Made by a program: the position numbers and the translations under genes. A DNA stretch of 64,000 bases. It comes from Sinimarinibacterium arenosum (GTDB taxonomy: Bacteria; Pseudomonadota; Gammaproteobacteria; Nevskiales; Nevskiaceae). Below the pieces are notes generated by a model that was not told the origin of the DNA, ran no database searches, and saw nothing but the letters and a program-made list of their open reading frames with translations. This document shows positions 53,507 through 64,000 of the stretch, piece after piece; positions within the stretch are counted from its first letter, which is position 1; each line of letters opens with the position of its first letter. The stretch lies in NCBI RefSeq assembly GCF_005047655.1, contig NZ_SUKF01000002.1, positions 124,001-188,000 on the forward strand. Reading direction: 5' to 3'.

Positions 53507-55648
53507 ATGAAAAACAGACTGCTGCTGCTGGGACTCATCGCCGCGGCCATTGTCGCGTTCTTCGTTTTCGATCTCGGGCACTACTTCTCGCTGGAGTATC
53601 TGCAGTCGCAGCGCGTCAGTCTGGTCGCGTACCGCGACGCGCATCCGCTGCTGACAACCGGCGTGTATTTCGCGGTGTACGTGCTGACGACGGCACTGTC
53701 GCTGCCGGGCGCCGCGGTGCTGACGCTGGCCGGCGGCGCGGTCTTCGGCGTGCTGTGGGGGACGGTGATCGTCTCGTTCGCCTCCACGCTGGGCGCCACC
53801 GGCGCGTTTCTGGTCGCGCGTTACCTGCTGCGCGATTCGATCCAGTCCCGTTACGCCGACAAGCTCAAGGCCATCAACGCCGGCATCGAACGCGATGGCG
53901 CGTTCTACCTGTTCACACTGCGCCTGGTGCCGCTGTTCCCGTTCTTCGTGATCAACCTGCTGCTGGGCCTGACGTCGATGCGGGCGCGCACCTTCTTCTG
54001 GGTCAGCCAGGTCGGCATGTTCGCCGGCACCATTGTCTACGTGAATGCCGGCACGCAGCTGGCGCAAATCACCTCGCTGCGCGGCATTCTGTCGCCCGGA
54101 CTGCTCGGCGCTTTCATCCTGCTGGGCATCTTTCCGCTGATCGCAAAGAAGCTGGTCGACTGGATCAAGGCACGGCGCGTCTATGCCCCCTACGCCCGCC
54201 CCGCACGCTACGACCGCAACCTGATCGTGATCGGCGGCGGCTCGGCCGGGCTGGTCAGCGCCTATATCGCCGCAGCGGTCAAAGCCAAGGTGACGCTGAT
54301 CGAAAAGCACAAGATGGGCGGCGACTGCCTGAACTACGGCTGCGTACCGTCCAAGGCGTTGATCCGCTCCGCCAAGTTCGCCAGCCATCTGGATCGCGCC
54401 TCGGAGTTCGGCTTCGACGCCGTCACCGGCAGGCCCGACTTCGCCAAGGTCATGGAACGGGTACAGACGGTGATCCGGGCCATCGAGCCGCATGACTCAG
54501 TTGAGCGCTATACCAGCCTGGGCGTCGAATGCATCCAGGGCGAGGCACGGCTGATCGATCCATGGACCGTCGAGGTCAATGGCGAGCGACTCACCGCACG
54601 CTCCATCGTGCTCGCCACCGGCGCCGAACCCTTCGTGCCGCCGATCCCCGGGCTCAAGGAAGCCGGCTATCTGACCTCGGACAACCTGTGGTCGCTGCGC
54701 GAGCTGCCGCCGCGGCTGGTCGTGCTCGGCGGCGGTCCGATCGGCTGCGAGCTGGCACAGTCCTTCGCCCGTCTCGGTAGCCGGGTCACCCAGGTCGAGA
54801 TGCTGCCGCAGCTCATGGGCCGCGAGGACCCGGAGATCGCTGCCGCGGTCAGGGCACGTTTCGACGCCGAGGGCATCGACGTGCGCGTCAACACCAAAGC
54901 CAAGGCGGTCGTGGTTGAAAACGGCCGGAAGTTTCTGCTTTGCGAAACGGCCGACGGCGAACAGCGTGTCGCTTTCGATCAGATCCTGGTCGCAGTCGGT
55001 CGCTCGGCACGGCTCAAGGGTTTCGGCCTGGAGGAACTCGGCGTCAAGACCGCGCGCACGGTCGAGGTCAACGATTTCCTGCAGACCAACTTCCCGAACA
55101 TCTATGCCTGCGGGGACGTCGCCGGGCCCTACCAGTTCACCCACACCGCCGCGCACATGGCGTGGTATGCCGCAGTCAACGCGCTGTTCGAGCCGCTGCT
55201 GGCACTGCGCGGCGGCAAGTTCAAGGTCGACTATTCCGTCATTCCGTGGGCAACGTTCACCGAGCCGGAAGTCGCGCGCGTCGGCCTGAACGAAACCGAC
55301 GCCAAGGCCCGCGGCATTGCCTACGAGGTTTCAAGCTACAACATCGACGAGCTGGACCGCGCGATCGCTGACGGCGAGGCACATGGGCTGGTCAAGGTGC
55401 TGACCGTGCCGGGCAAGGACAGGATTCTGGGCGTCACCATCATGGGCGAACACGCGGGTGATCTGATCGCCGAATACGTGCTGGCAATGCGTCACGGCAT
55501 CGGCCTGAACAAGATCCTCGGCACCATCCACATCTATCCAACGCTGGCCGAAGCCAACAAATACGTCGCCGGCCAGTGGAAGCAGGCGCACAAACCGGAA
55601 GCGCTGCTGCGCTGGGTCGAGAAGTTCCACGCCTGGCGCCGCGGCTAG
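53507..55648 (+). CDS. Fusion of VTT/TVP38-type membrane domain and flavin disulfide reductase
   Basis: This 713-residue protein joins two domains. Residues 1-225 are a VTT (DedA/TVP38/TMEM64-type) membrane domain with about six helices and the signature GAVFGVLWGTVIVSFASTLG then FYLFTLRLVPLFPFFVINLLLG. From about 238 begins a pyridine-nucleotide disulfide oxidoreductase: FAD loop NLIVIGGGSAGLVSAYIAA, redox disulfide Cys274/Cys279 in GGDCLNYGCVPSKAL, NAD loop VVLGGGPIGCELAQSFARLG, NIYACGDVAGPYQFTHTA and C-terminal dimer motif GTIHIYPTLAEANKY. It resembles mercuric reductase and lipoamide dehydrogenase but lacks the mercury-binding C-terminal cysteines. It is probably coexpressed with the membrane redoxin upstream. 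Confidence 0.92.
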   Translation: MKNRLLLLGLIAAAIVAFFVFDLGHYFSLEYLQSQRVSLVAYRDAHPLLTTGVYFAVYVLTTALSLPGAAVLTLAGGAVFGVLWGTVIVSFASTLGATGAFLVARYLLRDSIQSRYADKLKAINAGIERDGAFYLFTLRLVPLFPFFVINLLLGLTSMRARTFFWVSQVGMFAGTIVYVNAGTQLAQITSLRGILSPGLLGAFILLGIFPLIAKKLVDWIKARRVYAPYARPARYDRNLIVIGGGSAGLVSAYIAAAVKAKVTLIEKHKMGGDCLNYGCVPSKALIRSAKFASHLDRASEFGFDAVTGRPDFAKVMERVQTVIRAIEPHDSVERYTSLGVECIQGEARLIDPWTVEVNGERLTARSIVLATGAEPFVPPIPGLKEAGYLTSDNLWSLRELPPRLVVLGGGPIGCELAQSFARLGSRVTQVEMLPQLMGREDPEIAAAVRARFDAEGIDVRVNTKAKAVVVENGRKFLLCETADGEQRVAFDQILVAVGRSARLKGFGLEELGVKTARTVEVNDFLQTNFPNIYACGDVAGPYQFTHTAAHMAWYAAVNALFEPLLALRGGKFKVDYSVIPWATFTEPEVARVGLNETDAKARGIAYEVSSYNIDELDRAIADGEAHGLVKVLTVPGKDRILGVTIMGEHAGDLIAEYVLAMRHGIGLNKILGTIHIYPTLAEANKYVAGQWKQAHKPEALLRWVEKFHAWRRG

Positions 55649-57680: not shown

Positions 57681-58556
57681 CTAAAGCTCGCTGAGCGACG
57701 GTACGATCCGGCTGCGCCGCAGCTTGCGCACGAAATCCGGGAAATCCAGGCCGAACTGCTCCTGCATGGCCGTCGAACGACGCTGCAGCGTAGTCCAGTC
57801 CGGTTTGTAGTTCGGGTCCCTGAACGCAAACGCCAGACGGTTGCCGTCACGCCGGAGGTTGTGGGTGATGATGCCGCCATCGAACACCGACGCCATCAGC
57901 TCCAGATGTTCCTGGACATCACGCGCCTTGCCGATCAGGTTCATCACCAGCACGCCGTCGTCGCGCATGTGCCGATGCAGATTGCGATAGAACGAGGGAT
58001 CGCGCATCGCCGGCGCCACGCCCTTGCCGTCGCAGGCGTCGATCAGGACCACGTCCGGCTCTTCACGCGTGGTCGCGAAATAGTCGGCAGCATCGGCATG
58101 AATCAGCTGCAGGCGTTCGTCGTCCTCCGGCAATTCGAACCACTCGGACAGATCAATGACGTCGCCGTCGATCTCGATCGTCGTGATGCGAGTCCGCGGC
58201 AGCTGGCGATAGCAGTAGCGCGTCAGAGAACCTCCACCGAGCCCGACCAGAACAATGTGCTGCGGCCGTGGCGCGAACAACAGGAATGCCATCATCATTC
58301 GCGTGTAGGCGAAATTCAGCGCATCCGGATCATCGATGCACATCTCGCTCTGCACGAAATCCAGACCAAAGTGCAGCCGCCGGCTGCGGCCGTCGTCGAT
58401 CACGAACGGCCGCGTGTACGTTCCGTTACGTAACTGATCGAGCACCGCGTCAATATTGACGCCGGGTTGCTCGGGCAGACACAGGGTGCCGGGCTCCGAC
58501 ACGATCCTGGCCGGCAGCTGCATCCACTGCCGGCGCGTGCTCCGCGACGCGGTCAT
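57681..58556 (-). CDS. Spermidine-synthase-like methyltransferase-fold protein
   Basis: This 291-residue protein has the aminopropyltransferase/methyltransferase Rossmann core: LVGLGGGSLTRYCYRQLP (about residue 105), the acidic TIEIDGDVIDL, ADAADYF and LIDACDGKGVAP in place of the usual catalytic Asp loop. The N-terminal sheet is short, and the protein resembles the stand-alone spermidine-synthase-like group rather than true SpeE. Whether it transfers aminopropyl groups is uncertain. Its start overlaps the hyfI-like stop by 4 bases (ATGA), making it the last gene of the hyf-like operon. Confidence 0.78.
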   Translation of the reverse strand: MTASRSTRRQWMQLPARIVSEPGTLCLPEQPGVNIDAVLDQLRNGTYTRPFVIDDGRSRRLHFGLDFVQSEMCIDDPDALNFAYTRMMMAFLLFAPRPQHIVLVGLGGGSLTRYCYRQLPRTRITTIEIDGDVIDLSEWFELPEDDERLQLIHADAADYFATTREEPDVVLIDACDGKGVAPAMRDPSFYRNLHRHMRDDGVLVMNLIGKARDVQEHLELMASVFDGGIITHNLRRDGNRLAFAFRDPNYKPDWTTLQRRSTAMQEQFGLDFPDFVRKLRRSRIVPSLSEL

Positions 58557-59065
58557 CGTCGTGGGCTCGCCAGCGCCGACAGAATTCCGCGCAGAATCGC
58601 GGTAGGCGCAGGCGGACAGCCGGACACTTCGGCATCCACCGGAATCACGTTGGACACGCGCCCGCAGCTCGCATAGCTCTCGCCGAAAATGCCCCCGGTG
58701 CAGCCGCAGTCTCCGACCGCAACCACATACTTCGGCTCGGGCGTGGCGTCATAAGTCCGCTTCAAGGCAATTTCCATGTTCTTGGCGACCGGCCCGGTGA
58801 CCAGCAGCAGATCGGCGTGTCGCGGACTGGCCACAAAGCGGATGCCGGCGCCCTCGATGTTATAGATTGGATTGTTCAGCGCGTTGATTTCCAGCTCACA
58901 GCCGTTGCAGGACCCGGCGTCGACCTGACGGATCGCCAACGCGCGGCCGAGGATGCCGGCAATCTCGGCATGCAGCGTGTCACGCTCGGAAAGCAGATCC
59001 GCCAGCTTCAGCTGCGGCTCACTGACGATGCCGGTCCTGGCGATGCGTTTGAGAATGTCGAGCAT
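58553..59065 (-). CDS. HyfI/NuoB-like iron-sulfur subunit of the hyf-like complex
   Basis: This 170-residue subunit carries the proximal 4Fe-4S cluster in complex I-like enzymes. The ligands are Cys53 and Cys56 (SCNGCELEI), Cys120 (or 122) in GDCGCTGGIF and Cys150 in SGCPPAP; the context is that of HyfI/HycG, without the extra domains of larger NuoB proteins. Residues 1-45 are a short helical extension. It begins 7 bases after the large-subunit gene and is followed in a 4-base overlap by the spermidine-synthase-like gene. All cluster ligands are intact, so electron transfer is expected. Confidence 0.88.
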   Translation of the reverse strand: MLDILKRIARTGIVSEPQLKLADLLSERDTLHAEIAGILGRALAIRQVDAGSCNGCELEINALNNPIYNIEGAGIRFVASPRHADLLLVTGPVAKNMEIALKRTYDATPEPKYVVAVGDCGCTGGIFGESYASCGRVSNVIPVDAEVSGCPPAPTAILRGILSALASPRR

Positions 59066-59072
59066 GATGGCG

Positions 59073-60602
59073 CTACAGATCCTGGCCGCTGTAGGACAGG
59101 TTGAACGATTTGTTGATCAACGGAAAATCCGGAACGATGTTGCCGATGATCGCATGCTCCAGAGCCGGCCAGTTCTGCCACGACGGATCATGCGGGTGGC
59201 AGCGGCGGATGCGTCCGTCAACGGTCGCTTCCAGTGCGATCATCACCGGACCGCGCCAGCCTTCGACCAGACCGATGCCGAGCTGCTGCGCGGCGGCCGC
59301 GCCCAGTTCGGCGTGGATCGCCCCACCCGCCAGATCCTGCAGCAGCAGATCGCACAGCCGCAGCGATTCGATCACCTCGTCAAAGCGCACCGCGACGCGC
59401 GCGGCGACGTCACCCTGTGCCGAACCGGCGGCCTGCACGCCAAGCCCGGCATACGGCGCCAGCGCCAGATCGCTGCGCAGGTCGCGCGGACTGCCGCTGG
59501 CGCGTGCCGCCAGCCCGACGACGCCCAGGCGCTGTGCCAGCTCCGGGCTCATCCGCCCGGTCGTCACAAAACGGTCCTGCACACCGGCGTGCTCGTCATA
59601 GATCGCCCGCAGCTCGACGACCGCAGCTTCCAGCACCATGCCCTGCTCGCGCAGTCGCTCGATCTGCTGACTGCTTAGATTTGTAGCGACACCGCCCGGC
59701 ACAATCCCATCCATCGGATAACGCGCGCCGTAAACCTCCGCGTTGGCACGCAGCAGCCGTTCCTTCAGCAGAGAGAACTGGGTCAGGCCGAAACCGAAGC
59801 CGGCGTCGTTGCCGAGCGCGCCAAGATCGCCCAGGTGATTGGCGATGCGCTCGCGCTCCAGCAGCACCGCGCGCAGCTGTTGCGCCCGCGCCGGCACACG
59901 TGTGCCGCACAACTGCTCCAGTGCCATGCAGTAGGCCCAGCTGTAAGCAACGGCGGTATCGCCCGACACCCGCGCTGCCAGCCGCTGCCCCTGCTGCAGA
60001 TCCATCTGGCTGAAACGCTGCTCGATACCCTTGTGCACATACCCCAGCCGCTGTTCCAGCCGCAGCACCTTTTCGCCCACCACCGAAAAGCGAAAGTGTC
60101 CGGGCTCGATGGTGCCGGCATGCACCGGCCCGACTGCAATCTCATGCACACCGTCGCCTTCGACGCGAACGAAGGCATAGTCCTCAGCCTGCGCCGCAAA
60201 GCGCGCAGACCGATCGGCGTCATGCCGCAGCGGCAGGTAATCCACTGGCCAGCCGGCGTGCCGCAGCCACGCGCGGCTGTCGGCAGAATCGGCCTGCACG
60301 CCCAGCACATCCCGAACCGCACACTCCATCCGCACGGCACCGGGGTAGATTTCGACCAGACTCGGGAACGCCGGCGCCGCCTCATCCAGAGCAAGTTCGA
60401 TCACGCGCAGCCGGCTGGCGCCCAGGTAAGCCGCACGCAGCAGAAAGCCCTCGCCCAGATCGCGGCGGTCATCCGCCCACAGCGCCAGCAGGACGGCACC
60501 GGCATCGCGCTCGCCGCGCGCGCTCAGGCTCCAGTGGCTGCGCACCACCCGCTCGATCACGAGCCAGGCCGGCATGTCGGAACCTGAGTTCGCTGCATTC
60601 AT
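59073..60602 (-). CDS. HyfG/NuoCD-like large subunit lacking the Ni-Fe cysteines
   Basis: This 509-residue protein combines a NuoC-like 30-kDa N-terminal domain (about 1-125, with YPGAVRMECAVRDVLGV) and a NuoD/hydrogenase-large-type domain (GPVHAGTIEPGHFRFSVVGEKVLRLEQRLGYVHKGIE from about 159). Where group 4 nickel-iron hydrogenases have RVCGICGFAHS, this protein has RVSGDTAVAYS (211-221), so both metal cysteines are Ser213 and Thr216. The C-terminal Asp-Pro-Cys-x2-Cys is also absent; it ends IVPDFPLINKSFNLSYSGQDL. It therefore cannot bind a Ni-Fe centre in the known way. The gene is 1 base after hyfF and 7 before hyfI. Confidence 0.9.
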   Translation of the reverse strand: MNAANSGSDMPAWLVIERVVRSHWSLSARGERDAGAVLLALWADDRRDLGEGFLLRAAYLGASRLRVIELALDEAAPAFPSLVEIYPGAVRMECAVRDVLGVQADSADSRAWLRHAGWPVDYLPLRHDADRSARFAAQAEDYAFVRVEGDGVHEIAVGPVHAGTIEPGHFRFSVVGEKVLRLEQRLGYVHKGIEQRFSQMDLQQGQRLAARVSGDTAVAYSWAYCMALEQLCGTRVPARAQQLRAVLLERERIANHLGDLGALGNDAGFGFGLTQFSLLKERLLRANAEVYGARYPMDGIVPGGVATNLSSQQIERLREQGMVLEAAVVELRAIYDEHAGVQDRFVTTGRMSPELAQRLGVVGLAARASGSPRDLRSDLALAPYAGLGVQAAGSAQGDVAARVAVRFDEVIESLRLCDLLLQDLAGGAIHAELGAAAAQQLGIGLVEGWRGPVMIALEATVDGRIRRCHPHDPSWQNWPALEHAIIGNIVPDFPLINKSFNLSYSGQDL

Positions 60603-60603
60603 T

Positions 60604-62058
60604 TCATCCTCCGATCAGCGCCGCGGCGAGTCGGTACCACTGCGCCAGGAACGGGGGGATGTAAACGCCGAGCATCAGCACCAGCGCCAGATGCGCGAAC
60701 ACCGGCAGCAGTGCCGGCCGATGGGTCAGCGGCTTCACACTTGGATCACCGAACACCATCGGCTGCACGCGACTGAAGATCGCGGCAAACGCGATGCCGA
60801 GCGCCAGCAACAGGATCGGCGCAGCCCACGGCTGATCACGCATTGCCGTCGTCAGAATCAGGAACTCACTGGCAAATACACCAAATGGCGGCAGGCCAAG
60901 AATCGCCAGCGACCCCAGCATCAGACCCCAGCCGATCCGTGGCGACACGGTCAGCAAGCCGCTGATCTGATCCATCATCTGCGTACCCGCTTTTTGCGTG
61001 GCGTGGCCGACCGCGAAGAAGATCGCACTCTTGGTCAGTGAGTGCACCGTCATGTGCAGCAGTGCGGCAAAGTTCGCGACCGGTCCGCCCATGCCGAAGG
61101 CGAACGTGATGATGCCCATGTGCTCGATCGACGAGTACGCAAACAGACGCTTGATGTCCTTCTGACGCCACAGCATGAACACCGCGATCACCACCGACAG
61201 CAGGCCAAACAGCATCAGCATCTGCCCCGGCAGCTCCGACCGCACCGAGCCTTCGACCAGAACCTTGCAGCGGATCACCGCATACAGCGCGACATTCAGC
61301 AGCAGACCGGACAGCACCGCAGATACTGGCGTTGGGCCTTCGGCATGCGCATCCGGCAGCCAGTTGTGCAGCGGCGCAAGGCCGACCTTGGTGCCGTAAC
61401 CCACCAGCAGGAACACGAACGAGATCGCCAGCACGGTGGGTTCGAGTTGATGCTTCACTCCATCCAGATGCGTCCACAGCAGTGCGTTCATGCCCTCGCC
61501 ACCCAGCACTTTCTCGGCGGCGAAATACAGCAGGATGGTGCCGAACAAAGCCTGCGCAATACCGACGCCGCAGAGGATGAAGTACTTCCACGCCGCCTCG
61601 AGACTTGCCGCCGTGCGGTACAGCGATACCAGCAACACGGTCGACAGCGTCGCCGCTTCCATCGCCACCCACAGGATGCCCATGTTGTTGGTCAGCAACG
61701 CCAGCAGCATCGTGAACATGAACAGCTGGAACATGCTGTGATACAGCCGCAGGCGCATCGGATTGAGACGGCCATGCTCGGTCTCGATCCGCATATACGG
61801 GCGCGAGAACAACGACGTGGTGAAACTCACGAACGCGGTCAGCGCGACAATGAACACATTGAACGGATCAACAAAGAACTGATCCTGCAGCACCACCATG
61901 GGCCCGTCGGCAATCACCTTGACCGTCAGTATGCAGCCCGCAATAAAGGTGGCCAGACTCACCAGAACATTCAGCTCTGGCGCCCAGGTGCGCGCGCCGA
62001 ACACCGCCAGCAGCAGCGCGCCAAACAGCGGAAGACCGAGCAGGATCAGCAGTTCCAA
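60604..62058 (-). CDS. HyfF-like proton-pumping membrane subunit (NuoL/M/N family)
   Basis: This 484-residue protein belongs to the Mrp-antiporter-like membrane subunits of complex I and hydrogenase 4, with about 13-14 helices. Proton-path residues are present: Glu134 in ILWVAMEAATLS, Lys224 in GYGTKVGLAPLHNWLPDAHAEGPTPVSAVLS, the histidine of HMTVHSLTKSAIFF and a lysine in DIKRLFAYSSIEHMG. The order and motifs match HyfF/HycC. It starts one base after the hyfE stop. Because key residues are kept, proton (or sodium) translocation is likely. Confidence 0.92.
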   Translation of the reverse strand: MELLILLGLPLFGALLLAVFGARTWAPELNVLVSLATFIAGCILTVKVIADGPMVVLQDQFFVDPFNVFIVALTAFVSFTTSLFSRPYMRIETEHGRLNPMRLRLYHSMFQLFMFTMLLALLTNNMGILWVAMEAATLSTVLLVSLYRTAASLEAAWKYFILCGVGIAQALFGTILLYFAAEKVLGGEGMNALLWTHLDGVKHQLEPTVLAISFVFLLVGYGTKVGLAPLHNWLPDAHAEGPTPVSAVLSGLLLNVALYAVIRCKVLVEGSVRSELPGQMLMLFGLLSVVIAVFMLWRQKDIKRLFAYSSIEHMGIITFAFGMGGPVANFAALLHMTVHSLTKSAIFFAVGHATQKAGTQMMDQISGLLTVSPRIGWGLMLGSLAILGLPPFGVFASEFLILTTAMRDQPWAAPILLLALGIAFAAIFSRVQPMVFGDPSVKPLTHRPALLPVFAHLALVLMLGVYIPPFLAQWYRLAAALIGG

Positions 62059-62059
62059 C

Positions 62060-62722
62060 TCAATCCTCCTTCAGGGTTTCCAGATGGTGCAGGTCGAGGC
62101 TCTCGAACTGCTCGCGAATCTGGAAGAAGAAAATGCCGAGGATGAATACGCCGACCAGCACGTCGAGCGCGATGCCCAGCTCGACCACCATCGGCATGCC
62201 GTAGGTCGCACTGGTCGCGGCGAAGAACAGGCCGTTCTCCATCGCCAGGAAGCCAACCACCTGCGACACCGCCTTGCGTCGCGTGATCATCATCAGGAAC
62301 GCCAGCAGCACCACCGCAATGGCAATGCCGAGCGTGCTCCGCGTCACCGTATCTGCAAATTGCGAAATTGGCTGCGCCAGTCCAAACGAGAAGATCACCA
62401 CCAGCAGGCCGATCAGCAGCACGGTCGGGATGTTGACCAGGGTCTCGGTGTCCCACTGCACTTCAAGGCGCCGGATCAGCCGATGCAGGATCGCCGGCAG
62501 CAGGAAAACTTTCAGGACCAGTGTCATCGCCGCCGAGTAGTACAGATGATGCTGACCGCTGCTCCAGGCCACGATCACCGTGGACACCACCAAGGTCGCA
62601 CCCTGCGCCGCGAACAGATTGACCAGCGAACGCACGCGGCGTTGCGCCAGCATCGCGAATGACAGCAACAGCAGCAGCGCTGCAGAGAGATGAATCAACT
62701 GTGCGGACCATGGCAGTGTCAT
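62060..62722 (-). CDS. HyfE-like membrane subunit
   Basis: This 220-residue protein (ATG 62722, MTLPWSAQLIHLSAALLLLL) has about six membrane helices and the HyfE-type features VNIPTVLLIGLLVVIFSFGLAQPIS, FLAMENGLFFAATSATYGMPMVVELGIALDVLVGVFI and FFFQIREQFESLDLHHLETLKED. The middle resembles NuoK, with the glutamate in ENG. The gene is 4 bases after hyfC and 1 base before hyfF. Earlier in-frame codons overlap hyfC and are not used. Confidence 0.88.
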   Translation of the reverse strand: MTLPWSAQLIHLSAALLLLLSFAMLAQRRVRSLVNLFAAQGATLVVSTVIVAWSSGQHHLYYSAAMTLVLKVFLLPAILHRLIRRLEVQWDTETLVNIPTVLLIGLLVVIFSFGLAQPISQFADTVTRSTLGIAIAVVLLAFLMMITRRKAVSQVVGFLAMENGLFFAATSATYGMPMVVELGIALDVLVGVFILGIFFFQIREQFESLDLHHLETLKED

Positions 62723-62726
62723 GTCT

Positions 62727-63677
62727 CTAGCTCCTGAGTAGCAGTCGCACGAGCAGCCCCAGGACCGCGAGCAGGAACGCCATCGCCAGAAATTCTGGCG
62801 CGCGGAAGATGCGCAGCTTGGCACTGAGCGTTTCCATCAACGCCAGTCCGGCACCGGCAACCACAAGCTTGAGCAGCAACAGACCGAACGCCAGCAGCAA
62901 GCCCTCCGCTCCAGCCGAGGCTGGCGCCAGCCCCCAGGGCAGGAACAGCGCAAATCCAATGCAGGCGTAGTTGAACAGCTTCAGTGCACTCGCCCATTCG
63001 ATCAGCGCGAGGTGACGTGCCGAATACTCGAGCACCATCGCCTCGTGGATCATCGTCAGCTCGAGATGCGTGGTCGGGTTGTCGATCGGAATGCGCGCAT
63101 TCTCCGCCAGCAGCACCATCACGAAGGCGACAGCGGCGAAGGCCAGACTCGGATAGATCGCCACCGCACGGCCGGCCAGGGTTTCAGCCATCACCGGCAA
63201 CTCGGTACTGCCGACGATCAGCGAAGCGGTGAACACCACCATCAACAGTGCCGGCTCGGCCAGAAAGCCGATCATCATTTCGCGCCGCGCACCCAGCGTG
63301 CCAAACGCAGTGCCAATGTCCATTGCGGCCAGCGCGATGAATACACGCGCGGTGGCAAACAACCCGACCAGGGCTATGGCGTCGGCACTTTTACCGAACG
63401 GCAATGCCGTCGACAGCGAAGGCACGATCGCTGCAGCGGTTGCCATCGCACCGAACAGCAGGTACGGCACCGCGCGGAACAACGGCGATGCGCCTTCGGC
63501 GATCACGGCGTCCTTGTGCAACAGCTTGCGGATCGTGCGGTATGGCTGCAGCAGCGACGGCGCAGTCCGGTTCGATAACCACGCGCGGCACTGATTGACC
63601 CAGCCCAGAAACAGCGGCGCCAGCGCCACGCCGATCAGCACGCTGAGCAACTGTGTCAGCACCGTGATGGCGTTCAT
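62727..63677 (-). CDS. HyfC/NuoH-like membrane subunit
   Basis: This 316-residue protein is the NuoH/HyfC/HycD-type subunit that connects the membrane arm with the peripheral arm. About eight helices are seen. Signatures are APSLLQPYRTIRKLLHKDAV (about 39-58), ARREMMIGFLAEPALLMVVF and the highly conserved ENARIPIDNPTTHLELTMIHEAM (about 199-221), whose acidic residues are part of the quinone/ion path. It begins in an ATGA overlap with the end of hyfB. Confidence 0.92.
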   Translation of the reverse strand: MNAITVLTQLLSVLIGVALAPLFLGWVNQCRAWLSNRTAPSLLQPYRTIRKLLHKDAVIAEGASPLFRAVPYLLFGAMATAAAIVPSLSTALPFGKSADAIALVGLFATARVFIALAAMDIGTAFGTLGARREMMIGFLAEPALLMVVFTASLIVGSTELPVMAETLAGRAVAIYPSLAFAAVAFVMVLLAENARIPIDNPTTHLELTMIHEAMVLEYSARHLALIEWASALKLFNYACIGFALFLPWGLAPASAGAEGLLLAFGLLLLKLVVAGAGLALMETLSAKLRIFRAPEFLAMAFLLAVLGLLVRLLLRS

Positions 63678-64000
63678 AGCACGATCACCAGAAGGGCAAT
63701 CAGGGTCACGAAGCTATACAGCAGATAGATGCCGATACGACCGTGCTGCAGCCGGCCGACCAGAGCAGCAACACGCAACACCGCGCGTGCAATCGGCAAG
63801 TACAGCGCCGCCCAGAATCGGTCCAGCACTTCCACCCGATAGCGCGGTGCTTTATCGAATGGAGTCGGCAGCTCACGCCGCATGCTGAAAAAAGGTTCGA
63901 AGATATGGCGGATCGGCTGGCCGAAACCTTCAGCCGTGTCCTGCATCCGTGAGGTCTGCAACGGATACCCGCAATCCCAGGCCGGCGCCCGCCGCACGCG
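63674..64000 (-). CDS. HyfB-like membrane subunit, C-terminal end (cut by window edge)
   Basis: The last 108 codons of a NuoL/HyfB-like gene run off the right edge of the window. The visible part has the polar loop RHIFEPFFSMRRELPTPFDKAPRYRVEVLDRFW and the last membrane helix (GIYLLYSFVTLIALLVIVL), as in the C-terminus of HyfB/HycC-type proteins. It is the most upstream visible gene of the complex operon and overlaps hyfC by 4 bases. Confidence 0.8.
   Translation of the reverse strand, partial: RVRRAPAWDCGYPLQTSRMQDTAEGFGQPIRHIFEPFFSMRRELPTPFDKAPRYRVEVLDRFWAALYLPIARAVLRVAALVGRLQHGRIGIYLLYSFVTLIALLVIVL

What the first reader, a model, noticed from the sequence alone, without database searches (positions are those of the whole stretch)
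57681..64000. Hyf-like complex that has lost all nickel-iron ligands but kept the proton pump and FeS subunit
The large subunit (59073-60602) shows RVSGDTAVAYS where group 4 [NiFe] hydrogenases have RVCGICGFAHS, and has no C-terminal Asp-Pro-Cys-x2-Cys. The NuoB-like subunit keeps its four cluster cysteines, and the membrane subunits keep key Glu/Lys residues. This is an energy-converting-hydrogenase-related (Ehr-like) complex: an electron- or quinone-driven proton pump whose electron donor is unknown. No hydrogenase maturation genes and no HyfA/HyfH-type ferredoxin subunits are visible within the window. This is the best candidate here for an undescribed function.
Basis: partly seen in the sequence, partly recalled or inferred. 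Interest (0 to 1): 0.8.

Follow-up and report, generated by a model that had tools for sequence, protein, structure and literature searches.

The report
Hydrogenase-like proton pump without nickel-iron site
This operon encodes a membrane complex related to hydrogen-making enzymes that lacks their nickel-iron centre but keeps an iron-sulfur cluster and the proton-pumping parts; such "Ehr" complexes are already known and common, but what they do is still unknown.

Summary
On the minus strand lie hyfC, hyfE, hyfF, a hyfG-like large subunit, a NuoB-like subunit and a spermidine-synthase-like (SpeE-like) gene; hyfB begins past the window edge. The four nickel-iron ligand columns of E. coli HyfG/HycE read Ser, Thr, Ser, Gly here. 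In a 74-row alignment 68 rows have none of the four cysteines and 6 have one. The four iron-sulfur cysteines are invariant, 76 of 76, and the pump Lys/Glu residues nearly so.

It is an Ehr complex of the hyfBCEFGI kind, already in print; 61 of 80 fetched loci show the same six-gene order. Added here: 17 of 34 genomes with the complex show no hypD; a conserved Gly-Asp-Ser/Thr...Asn-x-Ser-Tyr pocket replaces the ligands; HyfH/HyfA-type ferredoxin genes are nearly absent; SpeE-like genes lie nearby more often than chance.

Most likely it is a redox-driven proton pump fed by a soluble carrier; donor, acceptor and direction are inferred. New member of a known kind.

The parts
63674..64000 (-). 3' part of hyfB-like gene (667 aa NuoL-type antiporter subunit; whole gene 63674-65677 = L003:6674-8677)
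   Evidence: NF005086 hydrogenase 4 subunit B; PF00361; stop overlaps the hyfC start by 4 bases
62727..63677 (-). hyfC-like gene (316 aa, NuoH-type)
   Evidence: PF00146 1.6e-28; E192, D199, E206, E212, E217 each 63/63
62060..62722 (-). hyfE-like gene (220 aa from the ATG at 62722; the ORF listing gives a longer GTG version from 62824)
   Evidence: NF008556 hydrogenase 4 membrane subunit 1.2e-27, under its cut-off; ATG checked; K70 68/68, E180 68/68, D186 68/68 in the 219-residue numbering used
60604..62058 (-). hyfF-like gene (484 aa antiporter-type subunit, TTG start)
   Evidence: NF005045 hydrogenase 4 subunit F 868.9 bits, over its cut-off; E134, K224, K303, K343, E398 each 71/71
59073..60602 (-). 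hyfG-like large subunit, NuoC/NuoD-type fusion, without nickel-iron ligands (509 aa)
   Evidence: PF00346 and PF00329; alignment with HyfG, HycE and the genome's own NuoCD; AlphaFold model pLDDT 87.5; best PDB match 7z0s_E, E. coli FHL large subunit
59940..59972 (-). former N-terminal ligand motif: RVSGDTAVAYS in place of RVCGICGFAHS
59076..59114 (-). former C-terminal ligand motif: NKSFNLSYSGQDL, ending the protein; HyfG/HycE have SLDPCYSCTD plus a C-terminal tail here
58553..59065 (-). hyfI/nuoB-like small subunit (170 aa)
   Evidence: PF01058 2e-31; cluster cysteines C53 (58907-58909), C56 (58898-58900), C120 (58706-58708), C150 (58616-58618), 76/76 each
57681..58556 (-). spermidine-synthase-like gene (291 aa), ATGA overlap with the nuoB-like gene; link to the complex is suggestive only
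   Evidence: PF01564 9.7e-13; NF003380 225.9 bits, below its cut-off of 304; overlap; tree

Best explanation
It is an Ehr (energy-converting-hydrogenase-related) complex of the six-gene hyfBCEFGI kind. Proposed working: a soluble low-potential carrier (ferredoxin, flavodoxin or similar) docks directly on the NuoB/NuoD-like arm and reduces the single four-cysteine iron-sulfur cluster; electrons pass to an acceptor in or near the rebuilt pocket of the large subunit, most likely a membrane quinone; the resulting change travels through the HyfC channel to HyfB and HyfF, which move protons out. Shown here: subunit set, loss of all nickel-iron ligands, invariant cluster cysteines, conserved pump residues, absence of HyfH/HyfA-type subunits, occurrence in genomes without hypD. 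Inferred: that it assembles, that electrons flow, donor, acceptor, direction and the pumped ion.
For: Ligand columns lost (68 of 74 rows with no ligand cysteine, 6 with one) while C53/C56/C120/C150 are 76/76, so the cluster has been kept under selection without the nickel-iron site. Pump residues: HyfB E145, K225, K303, K354, E409 62/62, K256 56/62; HyfF E134, K224, K303, K343, E398 71/71; HyfC E192, D199, E206, E212, E217 63/63. Six-gene order in 61 of 80 loci. 17 of 34 genomes with the complex have no hypD match at E<=1e-30 in a 274-genome sample of the class, all 17 rated at least 93% complete: no nickel-iron maturation needed. HyfH-like hits in 2 of 85 loci, HyfA-like in 1, HycI and HypB probes in none. 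Large subunit folds like E. coli FHL HycE (TMq 0.91) and then complex I NuoCD (about 0.8).
Against: No biochemistry. The tyrosine of complex I that aligns here (RIDY in the genome's own NuoCD; its role in quinone binding is recalled) is Gly214 in the window and Gly in 73 of 74 rows, so a complex-I-type quinone site is not conserved. No dedicated electron-input subunit was found. One paper calls the Geobacter Ehr already non-functional because it lacks the NiFe site (PMC13194489, passage).
Confidence: 0.5

Rival explanations
1. Same complex run backwards: proton motive force and quinol drive electrons uphill through the cluster to a low-potential soluble acceptor, supplying reductant.
For: Same parts as the best explanation. 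Close relatives occur in records named Gallionella, Thiobacillus, Thiomonas and Sideroxyarcus, groups known (recalled) for reverse electron flow. No fixed donor enzyme is encoded nearby: no recurrent donor gene among neighbour families found in 4 or more of 85 loci.
Against: Also found in ordinary heterotrophs such as Paraburkholderia, Rhizobium and Variovorax plasmids, and the genome has its own complex I cluster, which could serve reverse flow.
Confidence: 0.2
2. No net electron transfer: the complex works as a proton-coupled transporter or pH/ion homeostasis pump, the cluster being structural or a sensor.
For: No electron-input subunit. Neighbour families around relatives include SulP-type transporters (8 of 85 loci), CopG-type small proteins (15 of 85) and YoaK/DUF1275 proteins (8 of 85) (family names are my reading except YoaK, annotated). 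A more distant relative lies beside crcB, inorganic diphosphatase and DUF190 genes.
Against: Cluster cysteines 76/76 invariant; no transport substrate suggested by any fixed neighbour.
Confidence: 0.12
3. It is a working nickel-iron hydrogenase with unusual ligands.
For: Close to FHL HycE in sequence (E 3.2e-86) and fold; the genome makes nickel-iron hydrogenases.
Against: Ser/Thr/Ser/Gly at the ligand columns; no C-terminal tail of the kind HyfG and HycE carry after DPCYSCTD (that maturation removes it is recalled); 17 of 34 carriers without hypD. Nitrospira moscoviensis Ehr expression did not rise with H2 (PMC12342949, passage).
Confidence: 0.01
4. It is a decaying relic of a formate hydrogenlyase with no function.
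For: Reduced gene set against E. coli hyf (no hyfA, D, H, J, R). PMC13194489 (passage) treats the Geobacter Ehr as non-functional.
Against: Dozens of invariant residues across 74 rows from several phyla, invariant cluster and pump residues, operon kept in 61 of 80 loci. Geobacter Ehr subunits were abundant with formate (PMC7894505, passage).
Confidence: 0.04

Closest known systems
hyfBCEFGI operon of Cupriavidus metallidurans CH34 (Rmet_4666-4671; PMC2864759, passages seen)
   Same: Same six genes in the same order. The only match in replicon NC_007974.2 is taken to be it; that large subunit (L014) is 56% identical to the window's and lies in the same clade.
   Different: There the SpeE-like gene lies downstream with a gap (L014:14522, nuoB-like ORF ends 13877) and is of a different SpeE-like branch.
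Ehr complexes of Nitrospira and other nitrifiers (PMC5596200, PMC12342949, PMC10284858, PMC10432482; passages)
   Same: hyfBCEFGI composition stated in PMC5596200; no NiFe ligands; function unclear or unknown in these papers. Loci from Nitrospirae MAGs (L085, L086, L094) carry all six genes and fall in the same large clade.
   Different: 44-48% identical in the best segment. No CODH neighbour, as described for Ca. Nitrospira nitrosa, was seen near the window operon (my reading of the ORFs).
Geobacter sulfurreducens Ehr, GSU0739-45 (PMC7894505, passage)
   Same: Ech-hydrogenase-related, membrane-bound, with NuoL-like and HyfE-like subunits and large and small subunits.
   Different: Sequence not compared here; gene names and order differ (EhrA-1, EhrC, EhrL, EhrS named in the passage).
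E. coli hydrogenase-4 (hyf) and hydrogenase-3 / FHL-1 (hyc), fetched
   Same: HyfB, C, E, F, G, I counterparts; closest solved structure is FHL subunit 7z0s_E.
   Different: Lacks hyfA, hyfD, hyfH, hyfJ, hyfR and all four NiFe ligand cysteines.
Respiratory complex I (own genome, L004)
   Same: Homologous B, C/D, H, L/M subunits; no NiFe site.
   Different: Own NuoCD is 22% identical to the window protein; no NADH module; cluster motif is CNGC as in HyfI/HycG, not the SCC of NuoB; complex I tyrosine replaced by Gly.

Membership tests
[quoted passage not shown]
   FHL HycE is the best solved relative by sequence and fold; tree places it as sister to HyfG/HycE with complex I as outgroup, long branches noted
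Ehr (energy-converting-hydrogenase-related) complex | Lacks the residues that coordinate Ni and Fe | tested here: met
   S213, T216, S503, G506 at the four cysteine columns; 68 of 74 rows have none, 6 have one
Ehr (energy-converting-hydrogenase-related) complex | Mrp-antiporter-like membrane subunits | tested here: met
   PF00361 in HyfF- and HyfB-like proteins; key Lys/Glu conserved
Ehr (energy-converting-hydrogenase-related) complex | Couples a cytoplasmic redox reaction to charge translocation (suspected in PMC6349859) | not testable with these tools
   needs purified complex or membrane vesicles
Group 4 [NiFe] hydrogenase | CxxC near the N-terminus of the catalytic domain and DPCxxC at the C-terminus | tested here: not met
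Group 4 [NiFe] hydrogenase | Dependence on Hyp maturation | tested here: not met
   17 of 34 carriers show no hypD at E<=1e-30; the window's own genome does have hypD, so this is a test of the kind, not of this strain
Formate hydrogenlyase / hydrogenase-4 | HyfA/HyfH ferredoxin subunits and formate dehydrogenase partner | tested here: not met
   HyfH-like in 2 of 85 loci (L013, L049), HyfA-like in 1 (L056), HycI and HypB none; L003 none. The FdhF probe was only a short fragment and gave no hit, so FdhF is weakly tested.
Complex I (Nuo) | NuoD-type quinone tyrosine and NADH module | tested here: not met
   Gly at the tyrosine column in 73 of 74 rows; no NADH-module gene recognised in L003 (by reading the ORFs; no profile search of them was run)
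Spermidine synthase (for the 57681-58556 gene) | GGGDG and DSTDP-type motifs as in the genome's own SpeE (GGGDCG, DSTDPVGP; function of these motifs recalled) | tested here: not met
   window protein has GLGGGSL and DACDGKG; below the cut-off of the polyamine aminopropyltransferase models; activity itself not testable

The most novel reading that the evidence does not exclude
The former nickel-iron pocket has not simply decayed but been rebuilt. Three of four ligand positions are mostly hydroxyl residues (S213 in 63 of 74 rows; S or T at 216 in 72; S503 in 65) next to invariant D215, N501, Y504 and H161 (74/74 each), a pattern that would suit a hard metal ion or a small polar substrate. The complex would then be an energy-coupled oxidoreductase with a new active site. 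In some lineages a SpeE-like enzyme, recruited at least twice, may make or modify its substrate.
Probability: 0.12. Interest if true: 0.75.

Novelty: new member of a known kind. Interest (0 to 1): 0.4.

Why it matters
They keep the pump and the iron-sulfur cluster of hydrogenases and complex I but not the catalytic metal, so finding their electron donor and acceptor would show how a hydrogenase-like machine was re-used. The smallest version, six genes with no ferredoxin subunit, makes that question testable in a few proteins.

Tried and rejected
FNR/ANR-type box upstream of hyfB (consensus recalled): 2 of 62 loci with at most 1 mismatch against about 0.6 expected from random stretches of the same loci; no site in the window. 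Not supported as a common regulator.

Link with the Burkholderia lxa low-oxygen locus: suspected from recall; passages of PMC6127331 hold no NADH, formate, ubiquinone or spermidine terms. Dropped.

SpeE-like gene as a fixed subunit: rejected. It is found in 17 of 85 loci. Among 32 genomes tested, 10 have it inside the held Ehr locus (14 places against 0.25 expected; the 14 were counted at E<=1e-8 and the 51 places behind the expectation at E<=1e-15; related genomes are not independent), 22 do not. In the window's family and order 19 of 61 genomes carry a SpeE-like gene but only 4 of 61 the window-type complex. In the nearest kin, G004, the two are on different contigs (C25, C32). In six genus genomes the SpeE-like gene has no Ehr or window-flank gene within the 18 kb read. 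The window copy falls with those genus copies and outside the branch (98/99) of the other Ehr-linked copies, which also holds one Sphingomonas copy with no Ehr gene annotated in the 18.6 kb shown.

HypD as an associated gene: 17 of 34 carriers against 91 of 240 non-carriers, Fisher p 0.19: no association.

Rows dropped: A3 holds window plus 73 of the 78 loci that passed the length filter (left out L044, L050, L058, L064, L078); L080 and L081 failed the filter. A4 holds 41 of 75. The tree holds 34 of 80 loci plus 15 other rows and the window. The SpeE tree left out the third copies of L043 and L044 (two stops inside). Counts use rows with a complete frame, 0.8-1.3 of the window length and over 40% identity. 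Of the 19 loci without all six genes, most are cut by the contig; L087 (no B, C), L088 (no I) and L092 (no I) are not explained that way.
Full report
What is there. The window ends inside an operon on the minus strand. In transcription order: hyfB (63674-65677, mostly beyond the edge), hyfC (62727-63677), hyfE (62060-62722), hyfF (60604-62058), a hyfG-like large subunit (59073-60602), a hyfI/nuoB-like small subunit (58553-59065) and a SpeE-like gene (57681-58556). hyfB/hyfC and nuoB/speE overlap by ATGA. Profile matches agree: PF00346 and PF00329, PF01058, PF00361, PF00146, PF01564 and hydrogenase-4 models for B, E and F, of which only the F models are passed above cut-off (for B only the C-terminal part inside the window was scanned).

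Ligands. Against HyfG and HycE from E. coli MG1655 the four cysteine columns read S213, T216, S503 and G506. In A3 (window plus 73 loci) 68 of 74 rows have no cysteine at any of the four columns and 6 have one, that one at column 213. D215, N501, Y504, H161, K498 and D508 are 74/74; column 216 is S or T in 72, 503 is S in 65, 506 is G in 73. The protein ends at the motif, whereas HyfG and HycE have a tail behind it. The AlphaFold model is good overall (pLDDT 87.5, pTM 0.90) but weak at 158-169 and 506-509. Foldseek's first match is E. coli FHL 7z0s_E (TMq 0.91, 30% identity), then complex I.

Cluster and pump. The small subunit has the CNGC type motif of HyfI/HycG, not the SCC of the genome's NuoB; C53, C56, C120, C150 are 76/76. 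HyfB E145, K225, K303, K354, E409 are 62/62 and K256 56/62; HyfF E134, K224, K303, K343, E398 71/71; HyfC E192, D199, E206, E212, E217 63/63; HyfE K70, E180, D186 68/68 and E161 67/68. That these residues carry protons is established knowledge of the family, recalled.

Missing parts. No HyfH- or HyfA-like gene lies in L003. Over 85 loci HyfH-like hits occur in 2 (L013, L049) and a related Fe-S protein probe hits these and L061; L049 and L061, and L013, a second, different complex lies beside the window-type one. HycI and HypB probes gave no hit. The window's genome does hold hypD, HypF and a HypE-like AIRS protein and matches to PF00374, the best at 785 bits, on C20 and C21. So the organism has true nickel-iron hydrogenases elsewhere. 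In 274 genomes of the class, 34 carry the complex (E<=1e-90), 108 hypD (E<=1e-30), 17 both; 17 carriers have none. The complex therefore does not depend on nickel-iron maturation.

Relatives. 6 of 61 near genomes have a match at E<=1e-30; 4 of these (G000, G004, G023, G031) have the window type at 63-71%, and the other two, plus second copies in G023 and G031, are a more distant ligand-free type. Plasmid records with a match: 219, many of the weaker ones annotated as NuoD. In a 50-row tree the ligand-free rows form one group (99/93) beside HyfG/HycE, rooted on the genome's NuoCD; the program warns of long branches, so a single loss is likely but not proven.

SpeE-like gene. It is the most frequent non-core neighbour together with a CopG-type protein (15 loci each by ORF clustering; 17 of 85 by tblastn). 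In the 12 plasmid records that appear in both 20-row listings, it lies within about 8.1 kb of the large subunit, start to start. Six Sphingobium/Sphingomonas records in the SpeE listing are not in the other listing, and the one examined (L099) has no Ehr gene annotated within 18.6 kb. In 32 genomes 10 loci hold it, 14 places against 0.25 expected. Yet the window copy is of the genus's own resident branch (52-59% to copies in other genus members apart from G009 at 42%), and in those six genus genomes it is not near any Ehr gene in the stretch read. The link has thus arisen at least twice; whether it is functional is open. Its motifs GLGGGSL and DACDGKG differ from the genome's other SpeE (GGGDCG, DSTDPVGP).

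Literature. Passages only were seen, except search listings where stated. PMC2864759 describes hyfBCEFGI in CH34 and H16 as unlikely to serve lithotrophic growth. PMC7735108 classes the Acidithiobacillus hyfBCEFGI large subunit as non-hydrogenase with HydDB. PMC5596200 and PMC12342949 report it in Nitrospira. PMC6349859 defines Ehr and suspects charge translocation. PMC7894505 finds Geobacter Ehr abundant with formate, PMC13194489 calls it non-functional. PMC6688271 lists it in Methylacidiphilum. PMC12361115 did not use the terms Ehr or Hyf. Marreiros et al. 2013, the primary comparison, is not held and is recalled only. No paper joining the SpeE-like gene to these complexes was seen: 14 papers held two of four terms and none of the 10 listed contained 'spermidine synthase'.

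Verdict. A sound observation of a known kind of complex. The mechanism is inferred; the open question of what Ehr does remains.

Noticed in passing
L109 (Burkholderia cenocepacia plasmid NZ_CP073671.1, 96103-109173): A ligand-free large subunit of the second type (annotated nickel-dependent hydrogenase) with NuoB-, NuoH- and NuoL-like genes lies in a cluster with crcB, inorganic diphosphatase, a HAD hydrolase and DUF190, which may point to a role in fluoride or phosphate stress.
   Followed up: no
L008, L009, L011, L012 (relatives G056, G060, G023, G031): A second ligand-free large-subunit type, 30-32% identical, with RVSGVGS...AH and ...ASFGLT(V/I)AGCDR endings in three of four.
   Followed up: partly
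L013:1222-2679 (Variovorax plasmid), also L041, L049, L061: A second complex of related but different type stands directly upstream or downstream of the window-type operon.
   Followed up: partly
G000 contig C20 (L104, and 395318-396904) and C21: The genome carries nickel-iron hydrogenase large subunits, hypD, hypF and a nickel transporter away from the window.
   Followed up: partly
L100 (Paraburkholderia aromaticivorans plasmid), L043, L044: Three SpeE-like genes cluster around one Ehr operon together with YoaK, HPr-like and CopG genes (L100); L043 and L044 also have three, the third copy with two in-frame stops.
   Followed up: no
window 53507-55648 (+): A 713 aa ORF appears to join an N-terminal membrane domain to a dihydrolipoamide-dehydrogenase-like flavoprotein (my reading, no search run).
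   Followed up: no
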